A DNA stretch of 39,242 nucleotides from Candidatus Heimdallarchaeota archaeon (GCA_023705945.1 BPTM01000087.1:1-39242), one strand, 5' to 3'. Positions 14,802 to 39,242 are shown, counted from the first letter of the stretch. Notes: generated from the sequence alone by a model not told the origin. Numbers and translations are program-made.

Positions 14802-15017
14802 TTAATATAGAAAAATGGAGAGGAAGTTTTTCTCATGTGAAAGAAAAGCTCATTGCTCCAGAGTTAGAATCATTTTTGTTCATCTAACCAATTTCAATTC
14901 ACTGCTAATCTTAACACATTTTGAGAACTGATATGATATTAGTTTCAAAATATAAAAAACATTGCGAAAATAACGTTTATGTATTTTCATTTGATAATTG
15001 TACTAATTGTGATGCTA

Positions 15018-16046
15018 ATGAGAATAGGTGTATTAACTGGTGGAGGAGATTGTCCTGGTTTGAATGCTGTCATAAGAGCTATAGGAAGAAAAGGTATAGT
15101 TCATTACAATGACGAGTTTATTGGATTAAAAAACGGATGGGCAGGACTAATGTATCTAAATTATGTTAATTTAGAGCGCAAAAATCTAAGTGGGATTTTA
15201 CATTTAGGGGGGACAATTCTTGGATCATCTAGAACCAATCCAGAAAAAGAAGAGGGAGGATACGAACGAGCAATAGAGAATTTCAAAAAACTAGAACTTG
15301 ATGCTTTGATAGTTATAGGTGGTAATGATACATTAGGTGTAGCACAAAAACTACATGAGATGGGGATCCCTGTTGTTGGCGTGCCTAAGACTATAGATAA
15401 TGACATTTGCGCAACTGATATGACCTTTGGTTTTGATACAGCTGTATCAGTTGCAACAGAAGCTATAGATCGATTACACACAACCGCAGAATCACATCAC
15501 AGATGTATGGTGGTAGAAGTGATGGGGAGACACGCTGGTTGGATAGCAACATATTCAGGAATAGCAGGGGGAGCAGATTATATATTAATACCTGAAGAAC
15601 CTTGTACAGTAGATGACATAATTGAGGTAGTAAAAGGAAGAATAGAAAGAGGAAAGCTGTTTTCAATTATCGTGGTTGCTGAAGGGGCAACTTTACTAGA
15701 ACCAGGGGTTTTAGCTCAATCCAGAGAGACGGATGATTTTGGAAATGTTAGACTAGGAGGGATAGGAGAGGGATTAGCAAGAGTTATAGAAAAAAGGACA
15801 GGAATAGAATCAAGAGTGGTGGTATTGGGACATGTGCAAAGAGGAGGGACACCGACAGCTTATGATAGAGTCTTAGGCTCAAAATATGGTGTTGCAGCAA
15901 TTGATATGGTTCACAATGGGGAATTTGGTATGATGACATCTCTTCAAGGAACAAAGGTTAGATCAGTACCAATATTGGAAGGGATAAAGGAATCAAAGAT
16001 AGTCGACAAAGAGACATATGAAGTAGCTAAGGTGTTCTTTGAGTAG
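15018..16046 (+). CDS. pfkA: 6-phosphofructokinase, residues predict PPi-dependence
   Basis: A 342-residue PfkA-family enzyme converting fructose 6-phosphate to fructose 1,6-bisphosphate. Seen: GGGDCPGLNAVIR at the nucleotide loop, GGNDTLG, PKTIDND with catalytic D127, MGRHAGWIA and GHVQRGGTPTAYDR. At the two positions that separate donor use (E. coli G104 and G124) this protein has D104 and K124, the PPi-type combination seen in group III enzymes such as Amycolatopsis PPi-PFK. So PPi rather than ATP is the predicted phosphoryl donor, making the step reversible. Start 15018 (MRIGVLTGG) fits the family. An in-frame ATG at 14979 lies ~26 bases after an ATATAAAA box A and might instead be a leaderless start adding 13 hydrophobic residues. 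Confidence 0.9.
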   Translation: MRIGVLTGGGDCPGLNAVIRAIGRKGIVHYNDEFIGLKNGWAGLMYLNYVNLERKNLSGILHLGGTILGSSRTNPEKEEGGYERAIENFKKLELDALIVIGGNDTLGVAQKLHEMGIPVVGVPKTIDNDICATDMTFGFDTAVSVATEAIDRLHTTAESHHRCMVVEVMGRHAGWIATYSGIAGGADYILIPEEPCTVDDIIEVVKGRIERGKLFSIIVVAEGATLLEPGVLAQSRETDDFGNVRLGGIGEGLARVIEKRTGIESRVVVLGHVQRGGTPTAYDRVLGSKYGVAAIDMVHNGEFGMMTSLQGTKVRSVPILEGIKESKIVDKETYEVAKVFFE

Positions 16047-16079
16047 AAGTGTAGTAAAAATAATTAATAGAGAACTATA

Positions 16080-16159
16080 ATGGTGGGGACTGGGTGATTT
16101 GAACACCCGACCAATTGGTTTTGCCGACATTGTTAAACAATGTTCTCTGGAGCCAACCA
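16080..16159 (-). pseudogene. tRNA-Trp 3' fragment (left att-like repeat)
   Basis: On the minus strand this reads TGGTTGG, anticodon loop CTCCAG, an intron-like hairpin whose arms ACATTGTT/AACAATGT are fully complementary, then ACCAAT, the T arm (GGGTG TTCAAAT CACCC), AGTCCCC and ACCA. No GGGGACT acceptor 5' strand occurs upstream; a short GACTTT/AAAGTC hairpin and GGAGAGC precede it instead. It is therefore a fragment, most simply the far attachment site of the islet. A functional 3' half of a split tRNA is a less likely alternative. Confidence 0.7.
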
Positions 16160-16267
16160 GCTCTCCGACTTTCGAACAAAAACTAAAGTCAAGTATAATC
16201 TGAAGCAAAAGATTGAAAATCCTAAGAAGTAAGGAATATTTTTATTGATAAGCAACAACTGTTTTCT

Positions 16268-17314
16268 ATGGTATCTCAAGAGATGTTGAGAGGTTATATG
16301 TTAGAAGAAGTTTTAGCATATTTGGTAAAAAAGTCGGGTTTCAACTTATTGGTAGACGCTTCACAAGATAGAAATAACCTTGCAATGAAAAGAGGAGATT
16401 TAGTTGTAAGAGGTAGAGGAAAGTATCATCAAGCTAATGTCTTAGGACAACTAGAATGGACACCAGCATTTACATATCCATTAAGACTTTTTGTAGAAGC
16501 AAAATTTAGAAAGGATCCAATAGGAATTGATGTAGTTAGAAATGCAATAAGTATTCTATTAGATGTAAACCAGAAAAGCACCCTCAATGAAGAAGATATC
16601 TTGCTTCAAAAATATCATTATGTATATGCACTTTTCTCTACATCAGGTTTTACGGAAGATTCAGTATACATGGGATTAGCTCATCAAATATCTCTCATTG
16701 ATTTGAATAGTAGTGATTATAGTGTTCTTTTGGAATCAATAAGAACTGCAGCAAGGAACATAAAGGGAGACATTGATAATATGGATAATATTGTATACAA
16801 CTTGAGATATATATTAAGAAGAAAGTTAAGAACATTACCAATCAGAATAGAATACTATGGGGGACGAATGAATGATCATGAACAAATAGAGGAATTGCTT
16901 GGAAACATGATTAAAACAACAGAAAATTATGGTGAATTGTTCATAGGAATGCCAAATATTCCTTTTATGATATTACTAAAACCAGAGAAAAGAGATGAGT
17001 TTATACGCTATTTAGAAAGGAAGCCAAATCATAAAATAAATATTACATGGAGTCATCATATAGATAAGAGGAGAACATGGACAATAAGACCTTCAGAATC
17101 ACCAGAAGAATACAAATTGACATTCAAACTTCCGAGTGTACTTGCGAAGAGAATATTTGGAACAATAGATGAGGGGATATATGAGAGGGCATTGAGTGCA
17201 AAGGAAAAGTATTTTTCTCATATTATTATTTACAGAAAAGTGCAAAGACAAATACAATGGTATAAATTAAATTATGATAGAGATGAAACATTAAAGTATT
17301 TGGAAAATTCATGA
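16268..17314 (+). CDS. PD-(D/E)XK superfamily (restriction endonuclease-like) protein
   Basis: A 348-residue protein. The N-terminal ~120 residues look like a Mrr-type restriction-endonuclease fold: E13 in an opening helix, D44 in KRGDLVVRG, and E77-x-K79 in LFVEAKFRK, the D...E-x-K metal site, followed by a helix (VVRNAISILLDV). The remaining ~230 residues are unrecognised, with a charged C-terminal domain that could sense a ligand or bind DNA. It probably cleaves DNA. It is the first of two genes inside the tRNA-bounded islet and has its own A/T-rich box A (TTTTTATTG) ~27 bases upstream. A host-protection role is inferred from fold and location. Confidence 0.7.
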   Translation: MVSQEMLRGYMLEEVLAYLVKKSGFNLLVDASQDRNNLAMKRGDLVVRGRGKYHQANVLGQLEWTPAFTYPLRLFVEAKFRKDPIGIDVVRNAISILLDVNQKSTLNEEDILLQKYHYVYALFSTSGFTEDSVYMGLAHQISLIDLNSSDYSVLLESIRTAARNIKGDIDNMDNIVYNLRYILRRKLRTLPIRIEYYGGRMNDHEQIEELLGNMIKTTENYGELFIGMPNIPFMILLKPEKRDEFIRYLERKPNHKINITWSHHIDKRRTWTIRPSESPEEYKLTFKLPSVLAKRIFGTIDEGIYERALSAKEKYFSHIIIYRKVQRQIQWYKLNYDRDETLKYLENS

Positions 17315-17615
17315 AAGCAAATTCAAGCTTATTATAACAATATATTGCAATCCTAGAGGGTCTAATATTATAAATCTATAAAAGACAGTGTTTAAAGAAA
17401 AACCCAGAAATTGGTAGAAGATATTGGTGTAAACAGAGGGAGAGAGAGATTCTAGATAAAATTGTTATCTGTTTGAGCAGTGTCAAAAATTAGTTTATTT
17501 GAAGCAGAGCTCCAAAAGATTAAAATCATTACCACCAATATATAATCAGACATTAACTATAGAAAAATACTTCACTCTATGGTTGGTAAATTGAAGAGGA
17601 AAGGAAGTATTAACA
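17315..17615. other. Noncoding gap between the two islet genes
   Basis: About 300 bases with no credible reading frame. It holds TATAAATCTATAAAAG (17372-17387), a plausible box A, and a purine-rich GAGGAAAGGAAG just before the next ATG. The two islet genes thus appear separately transcribed. Confidence 0.4.
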
Positions 17616-19598
17616 ATGAACAATAATCAAATATCTAATAAATCTCCTACGATTTTCTTTTTTGGAGCTGGTTCATCAGCTAAGGCAAATGTGCCTACAA
17701 CTTTTGAATTTGCTAGAAAATTTGAAGCACATTTAAAAGAAGAATACAGTAAAGTAAAAATTAAAGAAACAGAATCTCCATATCATCTTTACCTTGAAAT
17801 TAAAAGAAGAATAAAAAACAAAGTGGGATATAATCCAGATATAGAACAGATTTACGAACTCCTTAATAGACTTCTTAACACTGAAGATGAGATTATACTT
17901 TCAATTTCTGATGATTATAAAGAAACTATTGACAAATATGATTTAAGTAAAATTGAGAGTTTAATTAATGATCTAAAGAAATTTATAAAAGTTAATACTC
18001 ATGTTGAACCTGAAAAAACTAACTATTTGAAAGATTTGAGAAAATATATTAGTTCAGAGTTTCCCGTTGAAATTTATACAACCAATTATGATAATGTCAT
18101 TGAGCAATTCTGTTCTCTTAATGACATAAATTACACTGATGGATTTAAACTAAATTGGGAGATATCAAGTTTTGAGGAAGATTTCCAATTAAATATTTAC
18201 AAAATTCATGGTTCATTATCTTGGTATCAAACCAGATCTGGTAAATTCATTAAAATTCCCTTATTACTTTCTAATAATCAAGGAAATCTACAACTCCAAA
18301 ATGGCGAAAAACTAGAAGATATGCTTATGTACCCAATGCTAAAATTGGAAAGACCAGGACCATTATTAGATTTAATGTATATTCTGAAAAGTAAGTTATA
18401 TGCAAAATCAACAAGAGTAGTGGTAGTGGTCGGATATTCTTTTAGAGATGATTATCTTAAGATGTTGTTTCTAGAAGCCCTGAAGAATAACAAAGGTTTA
18501 CACTTAGTGATAATATCTCCTTCTGCAATAGAAATAAAGAAGACACTTCTAAAAGATGATGCAGAGACGTTAGGTGAACGAATTATTTGTTACACATCTG
18601 TATTTGAACAGATTATAGAAAACTTATATGATATTAGTTCGAACCTCACTCAAGCTATTGACATAGAAAAAAATTGTAAATTAGAAGAAATAAAGGGATA
18701 TAGCTCAAAGGATTGGGATACCGCATTTCATTATTATTTCAAATCATCACATTTCACCAAGATGCATGAAATATCACATAAAGATATTGAGAGAACTAAA
18801 AATAAACCTTTGACAAACAAAATTATGTTATTTTTTGTTCTTGCAATAGGCCTTTATTCCTTAGGTTATAATGTAGAAGCTATAAAATATGAAAAACTCT
18901 TACATTTTTCATTAAAAATTGTGAAAAATTCCTTAAATATTTTTCATGAAACAATTATAGATGGTAAATCATATTTTCAAATGAAAACAGATTATAAATT
19001 CCAGAGAGAAGAAGGTCCCCTACAAGATTACAATATTACTTCTTATGAAATTAATCAAATAACAGAGAATATTGAGAAAATAAATTATTTTTCAAAATTA
19101 GCAAAGATGAAGATTTTGAGATGGATTAATCAAAACAAGCAAAGAATAATAAGTTTTTACGATAGTAATAATGGTATTTCTGAAGACGAAAAGAAATTTT
19201 TTGACAGTATTAACAATGGTATTTCTGAAGACGAAATCGAAATACCAAAAAGATTCTTTGAATGTTTTGAAGATCACAATAAAAAAGATTTCAAATGGGA
19301 TAGAATACTAAATCTGTATCATCTTTCATACATTTTGAAGAAATTCTTTTATAATTGGGAAACTGAAAAAACAAGAATAGTTGATAGTATTAAGTTAGAT
19401 TATAATTCATTATTTCCAGAATCCTCAGATTCAGATGAAAAAAACATTAAATTATCAAACAAGGAAGAAGTAGAAGAATATGTCAAGGGGATGTTTGATA
19501 AAGTTCTGGAAACATATTTAAAAACGGACGAAAGTGTTGATATTAGAAATTCTATTCATCATTGGAACTTACATAAATACAGTGCAGGAAGAAAATGA
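17616..19598 (+). CDS. SIR2-like NADase-family defence protein with unknown C-terminal half
   Basis: A 660-residue protein. Residues ~12-330 are a SIR2-like domain: GAGSSAKANVPTT (NAD loop), TTNYDNVIEQ (~155), KIHGSLSWY with the active-site-type His (~198), and VVVVGYSFRDDYLK (~272). SIR2 domains of this branch act in anti-phage systems (Thoeris ThsA, DSR, SIR2-STAND) by depleting NAD+. Residues ~335-660 are helical, rich in K, E and aromatic residues and unrecognised; this half presumably senses or oligomerises. A 15-residue unit (NNGISEDE...) is tandemly duplicated near residue 520. Purine-rich AGGAAGTATTAACA precedes the ATG. It is the second islet gene. A short open stretch ending YVETERI lies in the +1 frame beyond the stop, so a C-terminal frameshift is possible. 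Confidence 0.8.
   Translation: MNNNQISNKSPTIFFFGAGSSAKANVPTTFEFARKFEAHLKEEYSKVKIKETESPYHLYLEIKRRIKNKVGYNPDIEQIYELLNRLLNTEDEIILSISDDYKETIDKYDLSKIESLINDLKKFIKVNTHVEPEKTNYLKDLRKYISSEFPVEIYTTNYDNVIEQFCSLNDINYTDGFKLNWEISSFEEDFQLNIYKIHGSLSWYQTRSGKFIKIPLLLSNNQGNLQLQNGEKLEDMLMYPMLKLERPGPLLDLMYILKSKLYAKSTRVVVVVGYSFRDDYLKMLFLEALKNNKGLHLVIISPSAIEIKKTLLKDDAETLGERIICYTSVFEQIIENLYDISSNLTQAIDIEKNCKLEEIKGYSSKDWDTAFHYYFKSSHFTKMHEISHKDIERTKNKPLTNKIMLFFVLAIGLYSLGYNVEAIKYEKLLHFSLKIVKNSLNIFHETIIDGKSYFQMKTDYKFQREEGPLQDYNITSYEINQITENIEKINYFSKLAKMKILRWINQNKQRIISFYDSNNGISEDEKKFFDSINNGISEDEIEIPKRFFECFEDHNKKDFKWDRILNLYHLSYILKKFFYNWETEKTRIVDSIKLDYNSLFPESSDSDEKNIKLSNKEEVEEYVKGMFDKVLETYLKTDESVDIRNSIHHWNLHKYSAGRK
19170..19236 (+). 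repeat. In-frame tandem duplication inside the SIR2 gene
   Basis: A 22-base word beginning AATGGTATTTCTGAAG occurs exactly at 19170-19191 and 19215-19236, offset 45 bases (15 codons). It encodes NNGISEDE twice. Confidence 0.85.
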
Positions 19599-19785
19599 GA
19601 ATAACAAAAAGAGATATCTAGAATATTTAAAGGAAGCAATTAGAGAAATAGGAATGTATGTTGAAACAGAAAGAATATAGAAAAAGAATGTTTGAAAACA
19701 AGCAAAAAAGAATGAGAACAGAGAAATAATATCGCAAAAACCTTCTTTGAATAAATATACTTAGAAAAAAATAAGTAAAAGATGA

Positions 19786-19921
19786 TGGTGGGGACTGGGT
19801 GATTTGAACACCCGACCAATTGGTTTTGCCGACATTGTTAAGCAATGTTCTCTGGAGCCAACCACTTTCAGCTTTATCGCTAAGCAAGCGAAGTAAATCT
19901 ACCGGACTGAGCCAAGTCCCC
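19786..19921 (-). tRNA. trnW: tRNA-Trp (CCA) with two predicted introns
   Basis: Minus strand from 19921: acceptor GGGGACT pairs fully with AGTCCCC, then discriminator A and encoded CCA. The D arm begins GCTC AGTCCGGTAG, the anticodon stem is GTTGG/CCAAT around CTCCAGA (anticodon CCA), and the T arm is GGGTG TTCAAAT CACCC. Two insertions must be removed. Intron 1 (32 bases, ~19867-19898) lies at tRNA position 22/23. Its bulge-helix-bulge is good: CGGT pairs GCTG, flanked by 3-base bulges AGA and AAA, with an inner TTTA/TAAA helix. Removal gives D-stem GCTC/GAGT. Intron 2 (27 bases, ~19825-19851) is at the usual 37/38 site with an ACATTG/CAATGT hairpin, though its central helix is weak. The spliced RNA is 74 bases plus CCA. 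Confidence 0.78.
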
Positions 19922-19977
19922 AACCGATGCTCGTTTCCTTGTTCTCTTTATCTTTTTTTAAGGTTTTCTTTAAGCAT

Positions 19978-21014: not shown

Positions 21015-23804
21015 TTGTGGCGTGTGGATGGTATTGAGGGTAACATTGTAACAGCTACAGCATTAGATGGAACCAAAGCAGAAAGACATAGATTCTATGT
21101 TCCTGTTGAGAAATTTAAACCAGGAAAAATGGGTTTACCTGACCCGAAAGTTATAGGGAACATTGCAACTCAACAACTTATGTTAAGGGCATTTAAGTTA
21201 AGCATGATACATGGAACAGCTCCTTTAATAAGTCTTCAACAAAGTCGTGCTATTCCTACCGAATATCAATTGATTCCTATTCTAATGGCTCTTGAATTAC
21301 CAAAAGTAAGAATGTTATTAGCGGATGATATTGGTTTGGGAAAGACAATAGAAGCTGGTTTAATTATTTCGGAACTTTTAGGAAGACAAAGAATAAGTAG
21401 AATATTAATTGTAACACCTGCTAGTTTAAGAGAACAATGGAAAGAAGCAATGGAATATTTCTTCCACCTAGAATTCCGAATAATGTCAACTCGTAATCGA
21501 AGGATTTTAGAAAGATCGCTTCCACCAGGATATAATCCATGGGAATATTATCCTTGTATAATAACATCAATAGATTATGCAAAACAACCAATCCAGAGAA
21601 ATCAGATTCTTGAGCAACACTGGGATATGGTAGTTTTTGACGAAGCACATAATATTGCTAAACCTCACCAATCCGCTAAAAATCAGAAAATCGAAATGGC
21701 TAGATGGGAATTTGCTGAAAAAATTGCTAACTTAACGGATAATCTATTATTTTTGACAGCAACTCCTCATAATGGATATAGAGATACATATGCAAGCTTA
21801 CTTAGAATGCTGGTACCTGAAGGAGTTACTGGATCAATAATTGATCCAAGTATTAATAGAAATAAGTTAAAACATCATGTATGTCAAAGAAGAAGAGAAG
21901 ATGTTCTTAGATGGTTTAAAGAGGCAAATAGCGAAGAATCTCCTTTTCCAGAAAGGCATCAAGAAGAAATCTTCATAAAACCTTCTGAAGAGCAGATAAA
22001 AGCTATTGAGAGCATTGAAGAATTGGCTTCTCATTTATTGAAAATTGTCAAAAAAGGTACTGAACATCAAAAACACTTAGCTAATTGGACAATAATGCAT
22101 CTTCATAAAAGATCTATAAGCTCTTCTCACGCATTAAGAATTTCTCTTGAAAATAGAATCAAAACCGTATCCTATAAACTGAAAAATCTAGATGAGGAGA
22201 TTTTAGTTGGTCTAACTAAAGAAGAAATAAAATCAAATGTCTTAGATGAAGATTCAAGTGAGAATGTTGATGAAGAAGAAATTAGCCTTAGAACAGACAA
22301 AGTAATTTTTGGAGAGGAAAACGATCTAAATGTAGAAATAAAGCTTCTTAAACAATCTTTGAAAATTGCTAAGGAGATAACAGCTGAAAAAGATTCGAAA
22401 TTACAGCATTTAATCTGGAATATAATACCAAAAAGATTGAAGGAATATCCCAAACTGATGATTTTTACAAGATATAGAGATACATTAATTTATTTAAGGA
22501 AACAAATTAAAGAAGCTTACAAAGGTAAAGGAGTAAGAATCTTTTATGTAGATGGTACGATTCCAGAGGGGATTCGTAGAGATTACTTAAAGGATTTTAC
22601 AAATGCAAAATTAGGAATTTTAATTGCAACAGACTGTATTTCAGAAGGAATGAATCTACAATATGCGAGTAATCAGATTGTTCACTATGAATTACCTTGG
22701 AATCCAAACAGGTTGGAACAAAGAAACGGTAGAGTTGACAGATATGGACAACCAAAATCAAAAGTAATTATAAGAACATTGGTTATGGATGATACTTTAG
22801 AAGCAGATATTTTGAAAGTTCTGATAAAAAAAGCAGAACAAATAAGACAAGATTATGGTTTTTCTCCTCCCTTTTTTGGAGATGAAACAACAATTATTGA
22901 TTTAATTAAAAAACATAAACCCACTTTTAAACATGGACCTCAACGTACACTTCTAGAGTTCATTGGAAGTGAAAAGGACCCTTTTGATAAAAACAACATA
23001 GAATTAATCAAGAATGATAGTTTTTATGGAGGTTTAGAGATAGGTCTAGAGGAAGTTCAACAAAGGTTAAATTATACCTACAGTTTAATTGGAAGCTCTG
23101 AAGAAATACAAGAATTTGTTTCAAGTGGTTTGAAAAAATATGGTTGTAAAACAAAAGAAACAGAAGAAGGAATTTGGAATTTCGAATTTTCTGATGAATT
23201 CCTTAGAGGTATAGATCTTGAGAAAAATGTCTTCAATCTAACATTTGATTCTATTACAGCAGCTAAAAATCCCTCTCTCAATCTAATTGATCTTGGTCAT
23301 CCAATTGTAGTAAAACTTATAGAAAAGATAAAATACTCAAGTTTAAATGAGAAGGAGAAATATGGAAGAACGGCCGCAGTTAAGGTTGAAATTAAATATC
23401 CTGTAACAGCTGTTTTTCACATATTAGCTAGGTACATAGTTGACACAGAACCGAAATCAATTGTTGAGGAATTATTTGATGTGGGTATAGAGGTTTATGA
23501 TGGTGAAATTCTGAGTGAGGAAAGTGTTGAGGCCATAAAAAACGCAAATATTGTAATAATGGATAGAACTATGGATGAGATAAAGAAGGACATTAAGAAA
23601 TCTGTAGAGATTCCTAATTTACATCAAATGATTAATGAACAAACAAATCAAAGATGTCTGAAAATTATAGATGAAAGAAAACAGATGAAACAGAAATTAG
23701 AAGATGAAGCTCCCAAAGAATGGTTGGAAGGGATAGACAAAATCAGTGTGGGTTCTACAGACATAATGGCAGTAACTCTATATTATCCATCGTTGGAGGG
23801 ATAA
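21015..23804 (+). CDS. drmD: SNF2-family helicase, DrmD-like (class 1 DISARM)
   Basis: A SWI2/SNF2 translocase of at least 929 residues. Visible motifs are I LADDIGLGKTIEAG, II VVFDEAHNI, III LTATPHNG, and V/VI ATDCISEGMNLQY and RNGRVDRYGQ. The N-terminal WRVDGIEGN...ATALDGT region is the small domain typical of DrmD/HepA-type helicases. It is the first of three tightly packed genes with a methylase and a giant helicase, and should move on DNA for an anti-phage system. The start is uncertain. The only standard start codon in the open frame is TTG at 21015, but family-like residues (PEFLKVGSIVENRARL) are encoded upstream back to 20961. There a TAA interrupts an ATG-GGG-ATT opening at 20949, possibly a nonsense change from AAA. 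Confidence 0.83.
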   Translation: MWRVDGIEGNIVTATALDGTKAERHRFYVPVEKFKPGKMGLPDPKVIGNIATQQLMLRAFKLSMIHGTAPLISLQQSRAIPTEYQLIPILMALELPKVRMLLADDIGLGKTIEAGLIISELLGRQRISRILIVTPASLREQWKEAMEYFFHLEFRIMSTRNRRILERSLPPGYNPWEYYPCIITSIDYAKQPIQRNQILEQHWDMVVFDEAHNIAKPHQSAKNQKIEMARWEFAEKIANLTDNLLFLTATPHNGYRDTYASLLRMLVPEGVTGSIIDPSINRNKLKHHVCQRRREDVLRWFKEANSEESPFPERHQEEIFIKPSEEQIKAIESIEELASHLLKIVKKGTEHQKHLANWTIMHLHKRSISSSHALRISLENRIKTVSYKLKNLDEEILVGLTKEEIKSNVLDEDSSENVDEEEISLRTDKVIFGEENDLNVEIKLLKQSLKIAKEITAEKDSKLQHLIWNIIPKRLKEYPKLMIFTRYRDTLIYLRKQIKEAYKGKGVRIFYVDGTIPEGIRRDYLKDFTNAKLGILIATDCISEGMNLQYASNQIVHYELPWNPNRLEQRNGRVDRYGQPKSKVIIRTLVMDDTLEADILKVLIKKAEQIRQDYGFSPPFFGDETTIIDLIKKHKPTFKHGPQRTLLEFIGSEKDPFDKNNIELIKNDSFYGGLEIGLEEVQQRLNYTYSLIGSSEEIQEFVSSGLKKYGCKTKETEEGIWNFEFSDEFLRGIDLEKNVFNLTFDSITAAKNPSLNLIDLGHPIVVKLIEKIKYSSLNEKEKYGRTAAVKVEIKYPVTAVFHILARYIVDTEPKSIVEELFDVGIEVYDGEILSEESVEAIKNANIVIMDRTMDEIKKDIKKSVEIPNLHQMINEQTNQRCLKIIDERKQMKQKLEDEAPKEWLEGIDKISVGSTDIMAVTLYYPSLEG
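23795..23800 (+). promoter_or_regulatory. Ribosome binding site GGAGGG deciding a TTG start
   Basis: GGAGGG lies at the end of the helicase gene, 6 bases before TTG at 23807. It supports TTG as the methylase start and translational coupling to the helicase stop. Confidence 0.7.
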
Positions 23805-23806
23805 AA

Positions 23807-26800
23807 TTGGTAAGAAGAAGAAGAACTAAAAATTTTGTCGTAAGTGGAGGAATATTAACAATAGATTTCCTTTTGAATCTTCAAGAAGAAGAACCTAAAC
23901 AACCATTAATTAAACCAAATACATTTAGCATTCCACCAAATCTGATTATCGAAAATCAAAATCAATTAGATAATATGATAAAAGAATCTTGGGAGAGACT
24001 ATTAGAAAAATGGGATGAAATAAGTATTAAACTTAAATCAATGAATGAATCTGATTCTAAACAAAAGTGGACAATTCCATTGTTAAAAGCACTTGATTTT
24101 ATAGATATCCAATATTCCAGTAAAGACATTGCATTTGAAGATGGTAAGATTCAGGTATTTATTTCACATAGAGGATGGGCTAGAGCAGATGCACCTAAAA
24201 TACATATTGTTGGACCAAATCAAGAGTTAGATTCGAGATTAGATACAGATAGGAATAACAAAAGTCCTCATGATTCTTTACAACTATACCTTAAGATGGA
24301 TAAATCACTAACAAAATGGGGGATAGTAACGAATGGACTACAGATAAGATTATTGAGAGATTTCTTTCACACTCATACAAGAGGATATGTTGAATTTGAT
24401 TTGGAAAGTATCTTCTATGAAAGGAATTTCACAGACTTCCGAGTTTTGTACCGTTTAATACATGCTAGTAGATTCTTAAAGGATGAAAATAACCAGACCA
24501 TTCTTGATATTTTCTATGAAAAAAGTGTAGCAGCTGGAACAAAGATAGGAGAAGGTTTAAGAGAAAATGTTAAGAAAGCTATAGAATTAATCGGTAACGG
24601 ACTTTTGACTCATGAAATGAGGGAATTAATGATATTAAATGAAGACATCACTAAAGAGTTTTATCAGGAAATTCTGAGGATTATATATAGAATACTATTT
24701 CTTATGTTTGCTGAACAGAGAGGGATGTTACCTATGCATAATTCACTGTATGTTGAAGAATACAGTATTACAAAACTTAGAGAGAGAGCTGAAACAAGAA
24801 TTGTAAGTGATAATCATAGTGATTTGTGGCATGGGTTGTTTTCAACATTTTCACTGATAAGAGAAGGATCAGTCGAATTAGATGTTTTTGGATATAATGG
24901 AGATTTGTTTGATGATTCAAATTTTAAACACACTCAGAACATGGAATGTAGAAACGATTTCCTATTAGGAGCTATAAAAAATCTAACTCTATATGAAAAA
25001 GGAAAAGTTTTACAGAGAATAAATTTTCTTGAATTAGGGGTTGAAGAGATAGGTGCAATTTACGAAAGTTTATTAGATTTCACTCCTAGACTTCTAAAAA
25101 AAGACGAAGAAATCAATAATACACTATATAGAAGGGGAGAATTCATTCTTGATCCAAGAGGAGCTGGAAGGAAAACAACAGGTAGCTATTATACAGATAG
25201 TAAACTAATTGCTAAACTTATAGATTCTGCTTTGAAACCTATCTTCGACAAAGCAATTGATGCATGTGGGGAAGAAAAAGAAAAAAGAGAAAAAGCGATA
25301 TTAAACTTAAAAGTATGTGATCCAGCCTGTGGAAGTGGAGCATTTCTAATTGCTGTAAATAACTTCCTAGGAAAGGAGTTAGCTAAAATAAGAGCTGAAA
25401 CAGAATATCCACCAGAAAGTATTGAAAGACAAGCGCGTAGAGATATTTTAAGCAAATGTATTTATGGGGTAGATCTTAATCCAATGGCTATAGAACTAAC
25501 AAAAGTATCTTTGTGGATTAATGCAGCAGTTAATGACTTTCCTCTTAACTTATTGAATCATCATTTAAAGTGTGGTAATAGTCTAATAGGTACAAATAAA
25601 AAATCGATTAGAAATGGAATATTAAATGAAGCATTTCAGCCTGTTAGAGATGAAGATAAGGTTAAAGTTAGAATAATTAGAAATGAAAATGAATTTCAAA
25701 GAAAACATGTAAAAATGGTTCAACTTGACAAATTCTTACCAGAGATAGAAAAAATTGAATTAGATTACCAATCCTTTATTAAACTGGATGTTATGGTAGA
25801 AAGCACAAAAGCAGATACAATCAAAAAAAGAAGTAAATATTTAAAATTAATTGAGGATGAAAAATATAAACATCAAAAACTAATATATGATACATGGGCT
25901 TCGACTTTCTTTTGGCCCTTTTCAAAAATGCAAAAATCCTCAACTCCTACAAATTCTATGTTTAAAGCTATTTCTAATAATACACCAATGAAAGGGAAGG
26001 AGGAGACAATTACAAAGGTTAAGGAATTAGCTAGTGGGTACAATTTCTTTCATTGGGAAGTAGAATTCCCAGAGGTATTTAGAAAAGAAAAAGGAGGATT
26101 TGATTGTATTATTGGAAACCCTCCTTGGGAAAAAGTGAATATAAAGGAAAAGGAATTTTTTGAGGCATTCAAACCTGAAATTGCAAATGCTCGTAATGCT
26201 GCAACTAGAAAGGATATGATAAAAACCTTAGAAAAAATAGATCAACCTCTTTGGCTGAAATTTCAACAAGCTCAAGAACAAACAGGAAAATTTATCCACT
26301 TTTTAAAGAATTCATCTTTGTTTACATTAACATCAAAAGGTCTTGTTAATCTGTTCGCAATTTTTACAGAAAAATCTTTGTCCTTAATAAACGATAATGG
26401 ATTGGTTGGATTAGTAATCCCTTCAAACATCATGACAGATTTTAATTTCAGTGAGTTCTATGAAACACTTATTGTTAATAATCAGTTAGTCAGTCTCTAT
26501 GATTTCATTAATAGAAAAGGAATTTTTTCAGATTTACACAGAATGTATAAGTTTTGTTTATTTACATCTAGAAAGAAATGTAAGGAAAATTCCTTACAAA
26601 GTTCTCCAGAATTTATATTTAACTTAACTGATTTAAACAAATTAGAAAATGAGAGAAAACTACATATCACCTATCAGGATATTGAGCTTCTAAATCCAAA
26701 TACAAAAACATGTCCTATGTTTAGTGATAATAATGACTATGAGTTAACGAAAAAAATTTATAAAAACTCTAGAATAATCCTAAATCATACAGAACCTTTG

Positions 26801-27712
26801 TTTCCAGAACTCAAAGTTCATAGAATGTTTAACATGTCTGATGACTCCAAACATTTCAAAATTAAGGAGACTATAAACAATTTTGTAAAGGATAGCAATA
26901 CCTCTATTCGAATTTTAGAAAATATAAAATTTTTGCCAATTTATGAATCAAAATTTATATGGATTTTTGATTATCGATTTGCTGGATTCAATAATTGCAC
27001 TGGAGAAGATATTATTAAGGGTCATCCTAAACAAGCAGATAAAAATATATCTGTGTTGAATTATCATATAGAACCTAGATACTGGATAGATAATAATAAA
27101 TTTATGAACAAGAAGAATCACTGGGGTTGGGATTATAATTGGTTTTTAGGTGTAAGGTTAATAACAAATGCCAAAAATTGGAGAACCTGTATTGCAACAA
27201 TAATTCCCAATTATCCAAGTGTCAATTCTTTAAACCTGATTTTGAATATATCACCAAAACAAGCTCTTTTTTTAGTTTCTTCAATGAGTTCACTAGTTTT
27301 TGACTATTGTACTAGACAAAAATTGGTTGGAGTCAATTTAAATCAATTTTTGCTTGAACAACTCCCTGTAGTAGAGTATTCTACTTGGGAGAAATTTCAA
27401 GATATGATAATTCCAAAATCGATAGAGTTATTGTATACTTCTGAAGAATTAAGGGATTTTGCAATGGATTGTGGATATGATAGACCGCCATATCAATGGG
27501 ATGAAGAAAGAAGATTCATTCTTCAAGCTGAACTAGATGCTATATTTGCTCTTTTATATGGAATATCTAAACAGGATTTAATTTATATTATAGATACTTT
27601 TTCTATTCAAAAACAAAAGGATATACTAAAATTTAAAGATTACAAAACAAAGATAACGATTCTCAAGTATTATGATAAATATAGTGATTTAATTACGGAG
27701 GATATTGAATGA
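23807..27712 (+). CDS. drmMI: N6-adenine DNA methyltransferase, DrmMI-like (DISARM) / PglX-Eco57I family
   Basis: A 1301-residue class I DNA methylase. Motif I is VCDPACGSGAF (~503) and motif IV is GNPPWEKV (~771), the NPPW signature of adenine-N6 methylation. The N-terminal ~400 residues carry the SPHDSLQLYLK...WGIVTNGLQIRLLRD block typical of DrmMI and type IIG-like enzymes. The C-terminal ~450 residues are a target-recognition region ending in AELDAIFALLYGI. It should methylate host DNA to mark self. It begins at TTG two bases after the helicase stop, with GGAGGG upstream, and ends in an ATGA overlap with the next gene, so all three are one operon. No nuclease motif was found in the N-terminus. 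Confidence 0.85.
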   Translation: MVRRRRTKNFVVSGGILTIDFLLNLQEEEPKQPLIKPNTFSIPPNLIIENQNQLDNMIKESWERLLEKWDEISIKLKSMNESDSKQKWTIPLLKALDFIDIQYSSKDIAFEDGKIQVFISHRGWARADAPKIHIVGPNQELDSRLDTDRNNKSPHDSLQLYLKMDKSLTKWGIVTNGLQIRLLRDFFHTHTRGYVEFDLESIFYERNFTDFRVLYRLIHASRFLKDENNQTILDIFYEKSVAAGTKIGEGLRENVKKAIELIGNGLLTHEMRELMILNEDITKEFYQEILRIIYRILFLMFAEQRGMLPMHNSLYVEEYSITKLRERAETRIVSDNHSDLWHGLFSTFSLIREGSVELDVFGYNGDLFDDSNFKHTQNMECRNDFLLGAIKNLTLYEKGKVLQRINFLELGVEEIGAIYESLLDFTPRLLKKDEEINNTLYRRGEFILDPRGAGRKTTGSYYTDSKLIAKLIDSALKPIFDKAIDACGEEKEKREKAILNLKVCDPACGSGAFLIAVNNFLGKELAKIRAETEYPPESIERQARRDILSKCIYGVDLNPMAIELTKVSLWINAAVNDFPLNLLNHHLKCGNSLIGTNKKSIRNGILNEAFQPVRDEDKVKVRIIRNENEFQRKHVKMVQLDKFLPEIEKIELDYQSFIKLDVMVESTKADTIKKRSKYLKLIEDEKYKHQKLIYDTWASTFFWPFSKMQKSSTPTNSMFKAISNNTPMKGKEETITKVKELASGYNFFHWEVEFPEVFRKEKGGFDCIIGNPPWEKVNIKEKEFFEAFKPEIANARNAATRKDMIKTLEKIDQPLWLKFQQAQEQTGKFIHFLKNSSLFTLTSKGLVNLFAIFTEKSLSLINDNGLVGLVIPSNIMTDFNFSEFYETLIVNNQLVSLYDFINRKGIFSDLHRMYKFCLFTSRKKCKENSLQSSPEFIFNLTDLNKLENERKLHITYQDIELLNPNTKTCPMFSDNNDYELTKKIYKNSRIILNHTEPLFPELKVHRMFNMSDDSKHFKIKETINNFVKDSNTSIRILENIKFLPIYESKFIWIFDYRFAGFNNCTGEDIIKGHPKQADKNISVLNYHIEPRYWIDNNKFMNKKNHWGWDYNWFLGVRLITNAKNWRTCIATIIPNYPSVNSLNLILNISPKQALFLVSSMSSLVFDYCTRQKLVGVNLNQFLLEQLPVVEYSTWEKFQDMIIPKSIELLYTSEELRDFAMDCGYDRPPYQWDEERRFILQAELDAIFALLYGISKQDLIYIIDTFSIQKQKDILKFKDYKTKITILKYYDKYSDLITEDIE

Positions 27713-30700
27713 ATATTTTCGAAAATCTTAAACTATTGCAGAATTCTTACAGAGACTATGTTTTTACATTTCAAAGATTCAAAAACCCAAAAATCAAAGA
27801 GTGGGTTCACAAAAAAATAGACAAAGGAACATTACTTTGGAAAGAACCCTTCATACAACTTAATAGAAGATACAAACTAGGTGAAGGATTGGATGAATTC
27901 ATACAAAACGGAATAATCCATAATAAATGTAAACGAATATTTTCTTTAGATCCAAAAGAAGAAGATTCTGAGCCGATTAAACCTTATCAACATCAAAGTG
28001 AATCTTTGAAAATTATTTTTGAAAAAAACCAGAATACCATTATTACCACTGGTACTGGTAGTGGTAAGAGTTTCTGCTTTGGTATTCCCATAGTTAGTAA
28101 GTGTTTAGAGTTAAAAGAACAAGGTGTTCAAGGTATTAAAGCGGTTATAGTTTATCCTATGAATGCTCTTGCTAATTCTCAATATGATGATTTTGCTGAG
28201 CGTTTACATGGTTCTGGTTTGAAAATTGCTCTTTATACTGGTGATACTAAAAACAACCCTGAAGAAGCTATTCAATACCTAAAAGAGTCTGCTGAAAGAG
28301 ATCCATATGATTCTGAAATCTTATCTAGAGAAGAGATTCAAAATAATCCACCAGATATTTTACTAACTAATTATGTTATGCTTGATTTAATTCTTACAAG
28401 ATTTGAAGATAGAAAGCTCTTCCCTATACATCATAAAGGAGTATTAGAATTCCTGGTTATTGACGAAATACACACTTTTTCTGGTAAAAAAGGAGCAGAT
28501 TTAGCATGTTTATTGAGAAGACTCAAAGAAAGAACTGGAACCACAGGTAAGGTTCGATGTATAGGAACTAGTGCAACAGTTCAAAGTGCTGAAGGAGAAA
28601 CAGCTCAGGATTTAATAACTGAATTTGCTGAAAACACTTTTGGAGAAGAATTCTTGTCAGAAAATGTTGTAGGAGAATCATTTATTCCATTAACAGTAGA
28701 TGTTGAAACAAAATTACCTCCTATTTCTTCAGACCTCCAAGAAAAGATAATTAATTTTGATAGTACAATTGATTCCACAGCTTCAATCATTCAGTCTCTG
28801 TTGGATGATTCTTCTATAGAGAAAATTAAGGATGAACTATTTTTAGGTGAGAAATTACTTACTCATCCCGCCGTATTATTTCTAGATGAAGAATTATCCA
28901 AAAAACCTCAAAGTTTGACGGATTTAACAACTAAATACAATGAGAAATATCGAAAAAATGCTTCAGAAACCTTATGTAGAGACGAGTTACTTGCTGTTTT
29001 ATTAGCTGGAACTGTAGTTAAAATTATCATTGAGGACCAAATTACGTCTATTTTTACCCTTAAGCTTCATACATTCTTCTCTCAAGGAAGAACAATGATG
29101 TCATGTATTACAAAAAATGGTCCCCATATTCATGATAAGGGAGAAGTGAGCTGTTCAACTTGTGCTCAAAGAGGATTAGAAGCATTCAATTTTCCCATGC
29201 ATTTTTGTCGTTCTTGCGGACAAGAATATTATGGAATTGAAATCTCAGATAATAATGAATTGCTTCCCTGCGATATGGAGAGTGTTGAAGAGGAAACTGA
29301 AACAGGTTATGTTTTTATTCCAACAAAAGAAGATGAAGAGTGGGATATACCTGGTGAATGGTTAACTGATACTGGTAAAGTAAACAAAGCATTTGAGGAA
29401 AACATACCTCAAGAAATTGATTTTTGTCCAACATGCAACAAAATCAGCTCTGATTGTAATCACAGCGATAAATTTAAAGTTTATAAAATTCCCAAACCGC
29501 TCCTTTTTTGTCCTTCTTGCGGAGTTTTCTATGATAGAAGACCTAGAGAGTTTAGTAAGCTTTTCTCCTTTAGTACGGTAGGCAGGAGCACAGGAACAGA
29601 TATTTTAGTCTCTCAAATGTTAGGTGGATTACCAGCCAACCAAAGAAAAGTAATTGCATTTAGTGATAGTAGACAAGATGCAGCTTTACAGTCAGCGCAT
29701 TTGAATCATTTACATAAGCTCATACATTTTAGAAGGGGAATGTATCATGCTTTAGTTGATGAGGGAATAACTGTTGACAATTCCAAAGCTATTTTTCTAG
29801 GTGAGATTGGTCCCAAAATTTATGCAGCTTATGAAAGAGCTGAAGTAATGCCAAATTTCAGAGGAACAGAAAGGATATTTGGGACTTCTGACACATTAAT
29901 TAGCAAATATCAAAAATATTTGCATTTTACAGCTATAAATGATATCGTTGATCCTGCAAGAAGAAATCAACAGAATCTAGAGGATGTAGGATTAATAAAA
30001 ATCACTTATGATGGTTTGAATGATGTTGCAGCTTATTCTTCATTTTATGAAGAAATTCCAGAACTCAATCAGTTATCTCTACTAAGTAGAGCTGATTTTC
30101 TTTCTGGTTTTCTTGATATTTTCAGAAGGCAAAAGATGATACACCATAGATTCTTAAAATATTATGAATTTAGAAATGAAGTAATAGAGCAACTAAATGA
30201 AGATGTTCTTCCTGATGTTAAAAACTTTGGAGATAGACCAAATGGGTATAGTGACGATGCAAAGAATGTTAGAAATTTAGCTCGAGTTTATAGATTAACT
30301 GCATCACAAAGTAGATTGGTATATTGGGCCAAGAAGATATTAAATGTAAGTCAAGAGAGAGCTAAAGAAATCGTTTTAGAAGTAGTAACCATATTCATTA
30401 ATCCAAAAGTAGAATTCTTAATAGAACATAAAATTAAAAGAGTTGGCAGGATTTTGATGATACCTTCTGGAGTCATACGTATTTCCGCCATTGAATCTTC
30501 AAAACACCTAACATGTCCAAAATGTAATAGTATCTACCACTTTAGTGAAATAAGACAGTGTCTAAGATCCAAATGTCCATCTTTAGATGAAATAGACCAT
30601 TCTCTTAATTATTTCCGTAAACTTTACACAATAAAATTAGATAAAGCTATACAAATATTAGCTGAAGAACATAGTGGTCAACTGGAAGGAGACGAAAGAA

Positions 30701-32940
30701 GAAAAATCGAAACAAGATTTAGAGAAGAAAGAAATCCGCTTAATGTTTTAGTCTGTACACCAACAATGGAATTAGGAATTGATATAGGTGCTCTTTCTGC
30801 AATTTATATGAGAAATGTTCCCCCTAATGCTAGTCGTTACGCACAAAGAGCTGGACGAGCTGGAAGAAAAGGTCAACCTTCCCTAATTACAACTTTTTGT
30901 GGAGTAGGTTCTGCAAAAGGTCCTCATGATCAATATTTCTACAAATATCCTGATAAAATAATAGCAGGAAAAATCAGTCCACCAAGATTCTCCCTTGATA
31001 ACGAAAAATTGCTTAAAGCTCATATTCATTCAATCATTATCGAAAAAATCGAAGCTAAAATACCTGGAAAACCTGAAGGAATGATTAGGATTGATTCAGA
31101 TAATCCAAACGAACCTCTTTATTCATTCTATCCCGATTTTGTGAAGGAGCTTAATAATAAAATTAATGCTTCAAGCATAGACATAGTAAATTCAATTAAA
31201 AGAACCTTCAATGCAGAAATTGAAAACATAAATTGGTTTAATGAGGATTTTATTCTTGAAGTTACTAATAATTTTGTTAACGAATTAAATGTTGCTTTTG
31301 AATACTGGAGAAAAGAATACAAAGAACTCCATGAAGAAGCTGAATATATCTCTCACACATTAATTAGACATGGTAAAAGCAGGATTTCTCAAGATAGTGC
31401 TAGATATGAAGCTATTATTCGAAAACTTCAGAATATGAGAGAAGGTAAAAAAGAGTTCTATACTTTTAGATATTTAGCAAATAATGGTTTTCTACCAAAT
31501 TATGGCTTCCCAACAACTGTAGCATCACTAGCGTTTTTTGAGAGAGAAGACGATTTAACAAGAGATATAACTATAGCTTTGAGTGAATTTGCACCTCGCA
31601 ACTCTGTCTATTATAGAGGAAGCAGATATATTATCAATTCCGCTAGACCTAAAAAAGAGTCTCAGCAATTGGTTTTAGAGACAATTCTTGTATGTCCTAA
31701 ATGTCAATCAATAGTCTATGGGCCAGAAGCTAGAATCACAGATGCCTGTAATAATTGTGAAATATCTTTAGAAGATGTACATCCATTCGAAAAATGTTTA
31801 AAATTTCCAGATATGTTTGCAAAGAAGAGCACTAGAATTACAAGTGAGGAAGAGGAAAGAAGAAGACTGGGTTCGAATATCACCTATCATTATGAAAAGG
31901 GAGATAAACCCCTTCAGTATGAACTTAAGTTTCAAGACACCTCAAAAGCTATTCTTACCTATGATCATGGTGCTAGAATAATTATGCTTAACCAAGGAAC
32001 CCGAACTAAAACTGATGGCTTTACAATCTGTAATGCTTGTAATAAATGGCTTTTTGGAGATAAAACAATACAAAAACATTATGATCCAGAAGCATCCCCA
32101 ACAGATAAATGCTCAAAACATGGTGAAGAAGAACAGCTTAACAGAGGAATATATCTATTCACAAGAAATAAACATGATGTTATATCTTTTGATTTTGACC
32201 TTCCTACAAGCATTGATTCTGAAAAAACAGAGAATTTCTATCATACACTTAAAGAAACTCTGATACAAACAATTCAGATATCCTTGGATTTATCAGAAAA
32301 CGAAATAGATGGCTTCTTAAGTCCTCATGCTGTTTATGAAGGATTGTACAGGATTGTTCTTTTTGAGAAAGCTGAAGGAGGAGTTGGGATTCTTAGAAGT
32401 TTAACAAATCCCAATAGATTCAAGGAAATGGTTCAAAGAGCACTTGAATTACTTCACAAGTACGATCCAGAAGATCAAGCATGTCAGATTGCATGTTATA
32501 GCTGTCTATTAACATTCTTTAATCAAAGAATCCATCATCTCATTGATAGAAGGCTTGTTCTACCTTTACTCGAAAAAATGACTGATATTGATATTGTCAA
32601 ATTAGATCAAATTGAAGCAAATGAGATTGATATAGATGAATTATTGGAAAAATGTGATTCAAAATTCGAAAAGGAAGTTTTGCTAAAAATTAAAGAATTA
32701 GGATTAAGAATTCCAGATGAAGCACAAAAAATAATCTATGATAAAAACAAGCCTGTAGCAAAAGCTGATTTCTTTTTCAAACCAAACATAGTTCTTTTTG
32801 TTGATGGTCCTGACCACGATAAAGACTATATTAAAGAAGACGATGAAAGAAAAAGAAATGAACTCAAAGGTCTAGGCTATAGAATATTTGCAATTAAAAC
32901 TGTTAAAGAAGTTGAAGGTCTGAAGAAAATACTCAGATAA
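27709..32940 (+). CDS. Giant DEAD helicase with zinc clusters, DUF1998-type cysteine cluster and C-terminal Vsr-like nuclease
   Basis: A 1743-residue protein, start overlapping the methylase stop. Order: Walker A TTGTGSGKS (~114-121), DEIH box (~252), several CxxC zinc pairs (around 482-510, 575-610, 936-960, 1329-1355, 1441), helicase motifs TPTMELGIDIG and QRAGRAGRKGQ (~1045), a CQIACYSCLLTFFNQ cysteine cluster (~1592-1606) as in DUF1998/MZB proteins, and a final ~60 residues like Vsr/DUF559 nucleases (KADFFF, LFVDGPDHD, DDERKRNELKGLGYRIFAI). It covers the roles of DISARM DrmA (helicase) and DrmB (DUF1998) in one chain; Druantia DruE has a similar helicase-DUF1998 plan. Likely the DNA-translocating and cleaving effector. 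Helicase certain, system assignment inferred. Confidence 0.82.
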   Translation: MNIFENLKLLQNSYRDYVFTFQRFKNPKIKEWVHKKIDKGTLLWKEPFIQLNRRYKLGEGLDEFIQNGIIHNKCKRIFSLDPKEEDSEPIKPYQHQSESLKIIFEKNQNTIITTGTGSGKSFCFGIPIVSKCLELKEQGVQGIKAVIVYPMNALANSQYDDFAERLHGSGLKIALYTGDTKNNPEEAIQYLKESAERDPYDSEILSREEIQNNPPDILLTNYVMLDLILTRFEDRKLFPIHHKGVLEFLVIDEIHTFSGKKGADLACLLRRLKERTGTTGKVRCIGTSATVQSAEGETAQDLITEFAENTFGEEFLSENVVGESFIPLTVDVETKLPPISSDLQEKIINFDSTIDSTASIIQSLLDDSSIEKIKDELFLGEKLLTHPAVLFLDEELSKKPQSLTDLTTKYNEKYRKNASETLCRDELLAVLLAGTVVKIIIEDQITSIFTLKLHTFFSQGRTMMSCITKNGPHIHDKGEVSCSTCAQRGLEAFNFPMHFCRSCGQEYYGIEISDNNELLPCDMESVEEETETGYVFIPTKEDEEWDIPGEWLTDTGKVNKAFEENIPQEIDFCPTCNKISSDCNHSDKFKVYKIPKPLLFCPSCGVFYDRRPREFSKLFSFSTVGRSTGTDILVSQMLGGLPANQRKVIAFSDSRQDAALQSAHLNHLHKLIHFRRGMYHALVDEGITVDNSKAIFLGEIGPKIYAAYERAEVMPNFRGTERIFGTSDTLISKYQKYLHFTAINDIVDPARRNQQNLEDVGLIKITYDGLNDVAAYSSFYEEIPELNQLSLLSRADFLSGFLDIFRRQKMIHHRFLKYYEFRNEVIEQLNEDVLPDVKNFGDRPNGYSDDAKNVRNLARVYRLTASQSRLVYWAKKILNVSQERAKEIVLEVVTIFINPKVEFLIEHKIKRVGRILMIPSGVIRISAIESSKHLTCPKCNSIYHFSEIRQCLRSKCPSLDEIDHSLNYFRKLYTIKLDKAIQILAEEHSGQLEGDERRKIETRFREERNPLNVLVCTPTMELGIDIGALSAIYMRNVPPNASRYAQRAGRAGRKGQPSLITTFCGVGSAKGPHDQYFYKYPDKIIAGKISPPRFSLDNEKLLKAHIHSIIIEKIEAKIPGKPEGMIRIDSDNPNEPLYSFYPDFVKELNNKINASSIDIVNSIKRTFNAEIENINWFNEDFILEVTNNFVNELNVAFEYWRKEYKELHEEAEYISHTLIRHGKSRISQDSARYEAIIRKLQNMREGKKEFYTFRYLANNGFLPNYGFPTTVASLAFFEREDDLTRDITIALSEFAPRNSVYYRGSRYIINSARPKKESQQLVLETILVCPKCQSIVYGPEARITDACNNCEISLEDVHPFEKCLKFPDMFAKKSTRITSEEEERRRLGSNITYHYEKGDKPLQYELKFQDTSKAILTYDHGARIIMLNQGTRTKTDGFTICNACNKWLFGDKTIQKHYDPEASPTDKCSKHGEEEQLNRGIYLFTRNKHDVISFDFDLPTSIDSEKTENFYHTLKETLIQTIQISLDLSENEIDGFLSPHAVYEGLYRIVLFEKAEGGVGILRSLTNPNRFKEMVQRALELLHKYDPEDQACQIACYSCLLTFFNQRIHHLIDRRLVLPLLEKMTDIDIVKLDQIEANEIDIDELLEKCDSKFEKEVLLKIKELGLRIPDEAQKIIYDKNKPVAKADFFFKPNIVLFVDGPDHDKDYIKEDDERKRNELKGLGYRIFAIKTVKEVEGLKKILR

Positions 32941-39195: not shown

Positions 39196-39242
39196 AGATC
39201 GGAAGAGCACACGTCTGAACTCCAGTCACGTGAAACGATCTC
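39196..39242 (+). other. Illumina TruSeq adapter contamination
   Basis: From 39196 the sequence is AGATCGGAAGAGCACACGTC and continues through the standard index-read primer. It then reads GTGAAACG (TruSeq index 19) and ATCTC. This is library adapter, not genome. Confidence 0.97.

What the first reader, a model, noticed from the sequence alone, without database searches (positions are those of the whole stretch)
16080..19864. Two-gene defence islet integrated in tRNA-Trp with no integrase
80-bp direct repeats of the tRNA-Trp 3' end flank only a PD-(D/E)XK gene and a SIR2 gene. The intact tRNA is at one end and a 3' fragment at the other, both in the same orientation. Loss of the element would leave tRNA-Trp about 34 bases after the phosphofructokinase stop. 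A cargo-only, integrase-free element implies mobilisation in trans or recent decay.
Basis: partly seen in the sequence, partly recalled or inferred. Interest (0 to 1): 0.75.

Follow-up and report, generated by a model that had tools for sequence, protein, structure and literature searches.

The report
Gene cassette inserted inside archaeal tRNA-Trp
In a Heimdallarchaeota (Asgard) genome, two probable defence genes without any integrase have been inserted inside the tryptophan tRNA gene, which was rebuilt at one end and carries an extra intron right beside the break; similar integrase-free insertions sit at other tRNA genes of the same genome, so this looks like a recurring way of gaining genes rather than a one-off.

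Summary
An 83-bp repeat (98%) of the tRNA-Trp 3' part brackets only a PD-(D/E)XK-like gene and a SIR2 gene. Three congeners have the predicted empty site: pfkA, a short spacer, one tRNA-Trp. Two corrections. First, the 'intact' tRNA-Trp has a 32-nt D-arm insertion that folds as a bulge-helix-bulge intron, ends 2 nt from the repeat, and is absent from all 21 relatives aligned; removing it restores a canonical tRNA-Trp. Second, at least 19 kb on the other side of the tRNA is also foreign: it displaces a core gene block present in eight congeners. The pattern recurs in this genome: tRNA-Lys (6 kb, three empty sites, again a 32-nt D-arm intron), tRNA-Val (different cargo in a close relative), possibly tRNA-Leu. 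A 69% homologue of the nuclease in another species also abuts a tRNA-Val 3' fragment. The two genes do not travel together, and the nuclease has lost its probable catalytic Asp. No integrase of Heimdall composition was found in this 79% complete genome. Best reading: a non-autonomous tRNA-targeted cassette (CIME-like); how it was integrated is unproven. The nearest precedent for intron gain at such a junction is Caldiarchaeum tRNA-Thr.

The parts
14979..16046 (+). pfkA (phosphofructokinase), chromosomal left neighbour
   Evidence: Pfam PFK 9.5e-111; adjacent to a single tRNA-Trp in three congeners
16077..16159 (-). Left repeat: 3' fragment of tRNA-Trp (anticodon stem to CCA, including the canonical intron), no 5' half or promoter
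   Evidence: Direct repeat D1; this stretch matches the empty-site allele of L032 without mismatch through the tRNA body
16160..16175 (.). Left junction: short D-arm-like extension (GCTCTCCGACT against host CTCTACCGGACT), then cargo
   Evidence: Anchored alignment p about 0.01
16268..17314 (+). PD-(D/E)XK-like nuclease gene, 348 aa; motif E13/E14 ... (N57 where both homologues have D) ... E77-A-K79
   Evidence: Alignment with the G016 and Priestia homologues; 69% homologue in G016; plasmid homologue annotated restriction endonuclease
17616..19598 (+). SIR2-domain protein, 660 aa; GAGSS, TTNYD and IHGS motifs kept
   Evidence: SIR2_2 7.9e-12; PADLOC Aga_SIR2 2.6e-27; homologue in G012
19691..19781 (+). 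Inner arm of the right repeat: possible decayed pfkA 3' tail plus spacer (..TTCTTTGAATAA, about 30 nt before the tRNA)
   Evidence: Suggestive only: rank 3 to 95 of 12,530 genomic segments
19782..19864 (-). Right repeat: 3' part of the complete tRNA-Trp
19786..19921 (-). Complete tRNA-Trp(CCA) gene with two introns and encoded CCA
   Evidence: ARAGORN finds tRNA-Trp(cca) with a 27-nt intron once the D-arm intron is removed
19825..19851 (-). Canonical anticodon-loop intron, 27 nt
   Evidence: present in congeners
19867..19898 (-). 32-nt D-arm intron at position 22/23; bulges AG^A and AA^A, helix CGGU:GCUG, inner helix UUUA:UAAA
   Evidence: Shuffle p about 7e-4; absent from the 21 relatives aligned; single copy in the MAG
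19924..19975 (-). Conserved tRNA-Trp upstream (promoter) region
   Evidence: Alignment with L032
19976..39195 (.). Second foreign stretch (TPR gene, DrmD/DrmMI/DruE-like genes, others) in place of the pepF-NMD3-aIF2beta-RIO-KH-PHP-LysS block seen in congeners
   Evidence: PADLOC hits

Best explanation
A foreign 3.7-kb cassette with two independently acquired, probably defence-related genes was inserted by recombination inside tRNA-Trp of a Heimdallarchaeota lineage. The crossover lay in the stretch shared by both copies (anticodon stem to CCA). The host 5' half and promoter were rejoined to a cassette-borne 3' part, giving one complete tRNA, and the old 3' end was left as a fragment beside pfkA. 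The cassette has no recombinase, so it is either the decayed remnant of a tRNA-targeted integrative element or a satellite moved by an integrase supplied in trans: CIME-like in anatomy. Shown: repeat, empty sites, rebuilt tRNA, no integrase in the cassette, recurrence at other tRNAs. Inferred: site-specific integrase chemistry, trans supply or loss, and the defence role. The D-arm intron lies on the host side of the inferred crossover, so the simplest order is that it was already there when the cassette arrived or arose later, perhaps as protection of the target.
For: 83-bp 98% same-orientation repeat. Empty sites with a single tRNA-Trp in L032, L033, L035. The left copy carries the ancestral allele at the variable base, and its non-tRNA side is pfkA. 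The left extension is not host D-arm, which puts the crossover inside the 83 bp. Same arrangement at tRNA-Lys (L163: 32-nt exact fragment 6 kb downstream; in L224-L226 the flank follows the tRNA directly) and at tRNA-Val (L114, L111: different cargo in two close relatives between matching flanks). The nuclease homologue in G016 lies beside an exact 20-nt tRNA-Val 3' end. Cassette GC 28% against 35% for the left flank, with atypical dinucleotides.
Against: No integrase, excised circle or second copy of the cassette was found. The inner arm of the right repeat may be a decayed pfkA tail, which would suggest homologous recombination with DNA from a relative's own tRNA-Trp locus instead of a viral or plasmid attP. 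The adjacent foreign stretch of at least 19 kb leaves open that the cassette is the edge of a larger island. The MAG is 79% complete and no reads were available.
Confidence: 0.58

Rival explanations
1. Integrase-free entry by homologous recombination: DNA from another Heimdall strain, carrying cargo joined to that strain's pfkA tail, spacer and tRNA-Trp 3' part, recombined with the resident gene through the conserved tRNA.
For: Possible pfkA-tail relic at the right distance inside the right repeat; cargo exchange at tRNA-Val between conserved flanks; no integrase in the MAG apart from a fragment on a contaminant-like contig.
Against: The relic is short and only suggestive (p about 0.0002 to 0.008); tRNA-Val and tRNA-Leu fragments of 17-24 nt are short for homologous recombination.
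Confidence: 0.22
2. One island of at least 23 kb split the resident tRNA-Trp and carries its own complete intron-protected tRNA-Trp as a rescue copy; the two genes are its left edge and the resident 5' half lies beyond the contig.
For: The core block next to tRNA-Trp in eight congeners is displaced by at least 19 kb; atypical composition continues from 16.2 kb to the contig end; in G012 a tRNA-Val(CAC) is split by 3.66 kb that carries another complete tRNA-Val(CAC).
Against: No second tRNA-Trp 5' half in the MAG; the pepF block was not found in about 1.16 Mb of the genome read, so its junction is unseen; the promoter region of the complete copy looks native.
Confidence: 0.13
3. Assembly artefact: the 83-bp repeat joined unrelated contigs or strains.
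For: MAG with 432 contigs; untrimmed adapter at the contig end.
Against: The same arrangement occurs at other tRNAs with fragments of 17-32 nt; GC and dinucleotide shifts start at the junction; both junctions carry unique sequence.
Confidence: 0.05

Closest known systems
Caldiarchaeum subterraneum tRNA-Thr(GGU) locus (Sugahara et al. 2012, PMC3293823)
   Same: An insertion between a tRNA fragment and a complete tRNA that has gained a D-arm BHB intron, with an intron-poorer uninterrupted allele known
   Different: There the fragment is the 5' part, the 1.8-kb insert has a putative recombinase, and the intron was ascribed to attP. Here the fragment is the 3' part, there is no recombinase, and the intron lies on the host side of the inferred crossover
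CIME, cis-mobilizable element (PMC5704250); integrase-free ssrA islands of Dehalococcoides (PMC3146451)
   Same: att-like repeats bracket cargo with no integration or transfer genes
   Different: Those derive from known integrase-bearing parents in tandem arrays; no parent is known here
Heimdallarchaeum HeimM2 and aloposons (PMC8813620)
   Same: Small Heimdall elements at tRNA genes; HeimM2 is ascribed to an endonuclease, not an integrase
   Different: HeimM2 lies between 16S rRNA and tRNA-Arg and encodes a homing endonuclease; aloposons carry giant genes. In the passages read, none is reported to have rebuilt a tRNA with a new intron
SSV-type and pNOB8-type archaeal integrative elements (PMC8371274)
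   Same: Integration in the tRNA 3' half; anticodon-loop crossover is possible
   Different: Those encode the integrase, split or intact; here there is none

Membership tests
tRNA-targeted genomic island | Complete target tRNA at one end, displaced 3' fragment at the other, same orientation | tested here: met
tRNA-targeted genomic island | Uninterrupted site in relatives | tested here: met
   L032, L033, L035
tRNA-targeted genomic island | Integrase gene next to the tRNA | tested here: not met
   No integrase ORF between the repeats; MAG-wide only a fragment on a 53% GC contig
CIME (cis-mobilizable element) | attL and attR kept, no integration or transfer genes | tested here: met
CIME (cis-mobilizable element) | att sites still usable by an integrase of a related element | not testable with these tools
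   Needs an excision assay and a candidate integrase
Archaeal BHB tRNA intron (for the 32-nt insertion) | 3-nt bulge, 4-bp helix, 3-nt bulge; splicing restores the tRNA | tested here: met
   the default MFE fold did not show it
Archaeal BHB tRNA intron (for the 32-nt insertion) | Spliced in vivo | not testable with these tools
   No RNA data
PD-(D/E)XK nuclease | D...ExK catalytic residues | tested here: not met
   D in both homologues, N57 in the window copy; E77 and K79 kept
PD-(D/E)XK nuclease | Fold | tested here: inconclusive
   AlphaFold model pLDDT 33; no Pfam family above cut-off
SIR2 NADase defence proteins | SIR2-like domain with catalytic motifs | tested here: met
Thoeris, SIR2-HerA, SPARSA | Partner gene (ThsB, HerA, pAgo) adjacent | tested here: not met
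   The only other gene in the islet is the nuclease; the neighbours scanned hit no such family

The most novel reading that the evidence does not exclude
In this lineage 32-nt D-arm introns at tRNA position 22/23 are gained together with, or selected by, tRNA-targeted insertions and act as a lock that stops the rebuilt tRNA from being cut or recombined again. tRNA-Trp and tRNA-Lys of one genome show both features, with introns of equal length, position and layout but different sequence.
Probability: 0.22. Interest if true: 0.78.

Novelty: new variant of a known kind. Interest (0 to 1): 0.55.

Why it matters
The proposal that tRNA introns arise with, or protect against, integrating elements rests largely on one archaeal population (Caldiarchaeum). 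This locus adds a second lineage, an Asgard archaeon, with empty intron-free sites in several named relatives and two tRNAs in one genome showing both features, which makes the idea testable by comparative genomics. It also shows that Asgard genomes take up small defence-like cassettes at tRNA genes without a resident integrase.

Tried and rejected
Split-tRNA half for the left copy: rejected, no 5' half, acceptor partner or promoter, and the right copy is complete. 32-nt insertion as a transposed copy of another intron: no second copy in the MAG with up to 3 mismatches. The two genes as a conserved operon: rejected, each homologue occurs alone. Intron delivered by attP (Sugahara model): less likely, since the left junction is not the host D-arm that model predicts. 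Association of D-arm introns with insertions in this genome: 2 of 3 against about 2 of 22 tRNAs, Fisher p about 0.06, and one D-arm intron (C225, probably tRNA-Met) has no fragment, so not established. Homologues of the nuclease in viral contigs and phages: none. Nuclease structure: unusable. Far end of the foreign stretch: pepF block not found in about 1.16 Mb of non-masked own sequence. Helper integrase beside a tRNA in congeners: none within about 1.5 kb. pfkA-tail relic: first looked strong, only suggestive against a genome-wide background.

Full report
The window is one complete contig (G000:C87) of a 79% complete, 432-contig Heimdallarchaeota genome; named congeners are Candidatus Heimdallarchaeota. 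The 83-bp repeat is real: 16077-16159 and 19782-19864, 81 of 83 identical, same orientation. It is the 3' part of tRNA-Trp(CCA) on the minus strand, from the anticodon stem to CCA, including the canonical 27-nt intron. The right copy continues into a 5' half and a promoter region conserved in congeners; the left copy does not. No other copy is in the genome.

Empty site. In L031 and L034 a 3-kb gene for a surface-type protein lies between pfkA and the single tRNA, without a repeat. The left window copy has the ancestral flank and allele and the right copy the ancestral promoter region, so the insertion lies inside the tRNA gene.

The intron. The right copy has 32 extra bases in the D-arm that are absent from the tRNA-Trp of all 21 relatives aligned (20 congeners and one genome of the same family). 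They form a bulge-helix-bulge: exon CGGU pairs with intron GCUG, bulges AG^A and AA^A, inner helix UUUA:UAAA. Shuffled introns satisfy this in about 7 of 10,000 cases. The unconstrained minimum-energy fold does not show it, so this is a motif match, not proof of splicing. With the 32 bases removed ARAGORN reports tRNA-Trp(cca) with its 27-nt intron; with them it reports nothing. The insertion begins 2 nt from the end of the repeat. The left copy beyond the repeat reads CAGCTCTCCGACT where the host has CACTCTACCGGACT: similar (p about 0.01) but not host. If the cassette contributed that side, the crossover lies inside the 83 bp and the intron belongs to the host half. This differs from the model of Sugahara et al. 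2012 (PMC3293823), in which attP brings the intron, although the anatomy is otherwise very close. Two congeners, G016 and G013, have T-loop introns in tRNA-Trp and no repeat, so intron gain in this tRNA also occurs without an insertion.

The cargo. The SIR2 protein has a good domain match and intact motifs; its best solved relatives are SIR2 chains of two entry groups (identified from memory as SIR2-HerA-type proteins), but no HerA, ThsB or pAgo lies beside it. The 348-aa protein has an E...D...ExK pattern shared with a G016 homologue (69%) and a Priestia plasmid protein annotated restriction endonuclease (34%). The window copy has Asn in place of Asp57, so it may be catalytically dead. Each gene's nearest relative stands without the other, so they are two cargoes, not a system. 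The defence role is inferred.

Recurrence. (a) tRNA-Lys(CTT) in the same genome (L163 1230-1338) is followed 6 kb downstream by an exact 32-nt 3' fragment; in three congeners the conserved flank follows the tRNA directly. Its D-arm also carries a 32-nt BHB intron at 22/23 (helix AGGU:GCCU, same bulges) that the three congeners lack; they have an anticodon intron instead. About 2 kb of that insert is masked, so a recombinase there cannot be excluded. (b) tRNA-Val(TAC): G000 and its close relative G004 have unrelated single-gene inserts (467-aa and 295-aa ORFs) between the tRNA and a 22-24-nt 3' fragment, with flanks 90% and 96% identical. The 28 bases after this tRNA are conserved in relatives, so classical integration is less clear here. 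(c) tRNA-Leu with a TnpB-like gene and a 17-nt fragment (TnpB by eye). (d) In G016 the nuclease homologue lies beside an exact 20-nt tRNA-Val 3' end. In all, the nuclease gene is found beside tRNA 3' fragments of two different tRNAs in two species.

Wider locus. In eight congeners the gene block on the 5' side of tRNA-Trp is conserved (an M3-type oligoendopeptidase, then NMD3, aIF2beta, RIO, KH, PHP and LysS-like genes; names by eye). In the window 19.3 kb on that side has no match to it and holds DrmD-, DrmMI- and DruE-like genes. So either two insertions met at this tRNA, or one larger island carries its own tRNA-Trp. A case with both ends visible exists in G012, where tRNA-Val(CAC) is split by 3.66 kb carrying another complete tRNA-Val(CAC). 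The far end could not be found in the roughly 1.16 Mb of own sequence read.

Mechanism. Tyrosine integrases use tRNA anticodon and T-arm sites, and archaeal att sites can reach the D-loop (PMC8371274). The anatomy fits an integrase acting within the shared stretch, followed by loss or trans supply. No integrase of Heimdall composition was found in this genome, though 8 of 21 genomes of the genus, this one included, have a match over the cut-off. A weaker clue, a possible pfkA-tail relic inside the right repeat, favours homologous recombination with DNA of a relative. I rate the integrated-cassette reading at 0.58, with the recombination chemistry open.

Noticed in passing
L163 1230-1338 and 7311-7342 (G000:C200): tRNA-Lys(CTT) with a 32-nt D-arm BHB intron and a 6-kb insertion ending in a 32-nt tRNA 3' fragment; empty site in three congeners; ARAGORN miscalls it as tRNA-Gly.
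   Followed up: yes
L114 2052-3618 and L111 7081-8278: tRNA-Val(TAC) followed by different single-gene inserts in two close relatives, each ending in a 22-24-nt tRNA-Val 3' fragment.
   Followed up: partly
L110 12606-16347 (G012:C145): tRNA-Val(CAC) split at the anticodon loop by 3.66 kb that carries a second, divergent, complete tRNA-Val(CAC), a possible transposase-type ORF and two small ORFs.
   Followed up: partly
L022 (G016) and L023 (G013): T-loop introns in tRNA-Trp of two congeners, not seen in the other relatives aligned.
   Followed up: partly
L171 (G000:C225): A probable tRNA-Met gene with a 32-nt D-arm insertion that fits a BHB (GUUA:UAAC), without a nearby 3' fragment.
   Followed up: partly
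window 21015-32940: Adjacent DrmD-like helicase, DrmMI-like methylase and DruE-like helicase genes: a DISARM/Druantia-like mix next to the islet.
   Followed up: no
window 39196-39242: Illumina TruSeq adapter left at the contig end; the same adapter ends G015:C4.
   Followed up: yes
L116 (G000:C289): 53% GC contig with an integrase C-terminus in a 34% GC genome, probably contamination of the MAG.
   Followed up: partly
L031 2684-5680 and L034 10812-13745: About 3-kb gene of endonuclease/exonuclease-phosphatase, Ig and lamin-tail type (by eye) between pfkA and tRNA-Trp in two congeners, without a tRNA repeat.
   Followed up: no
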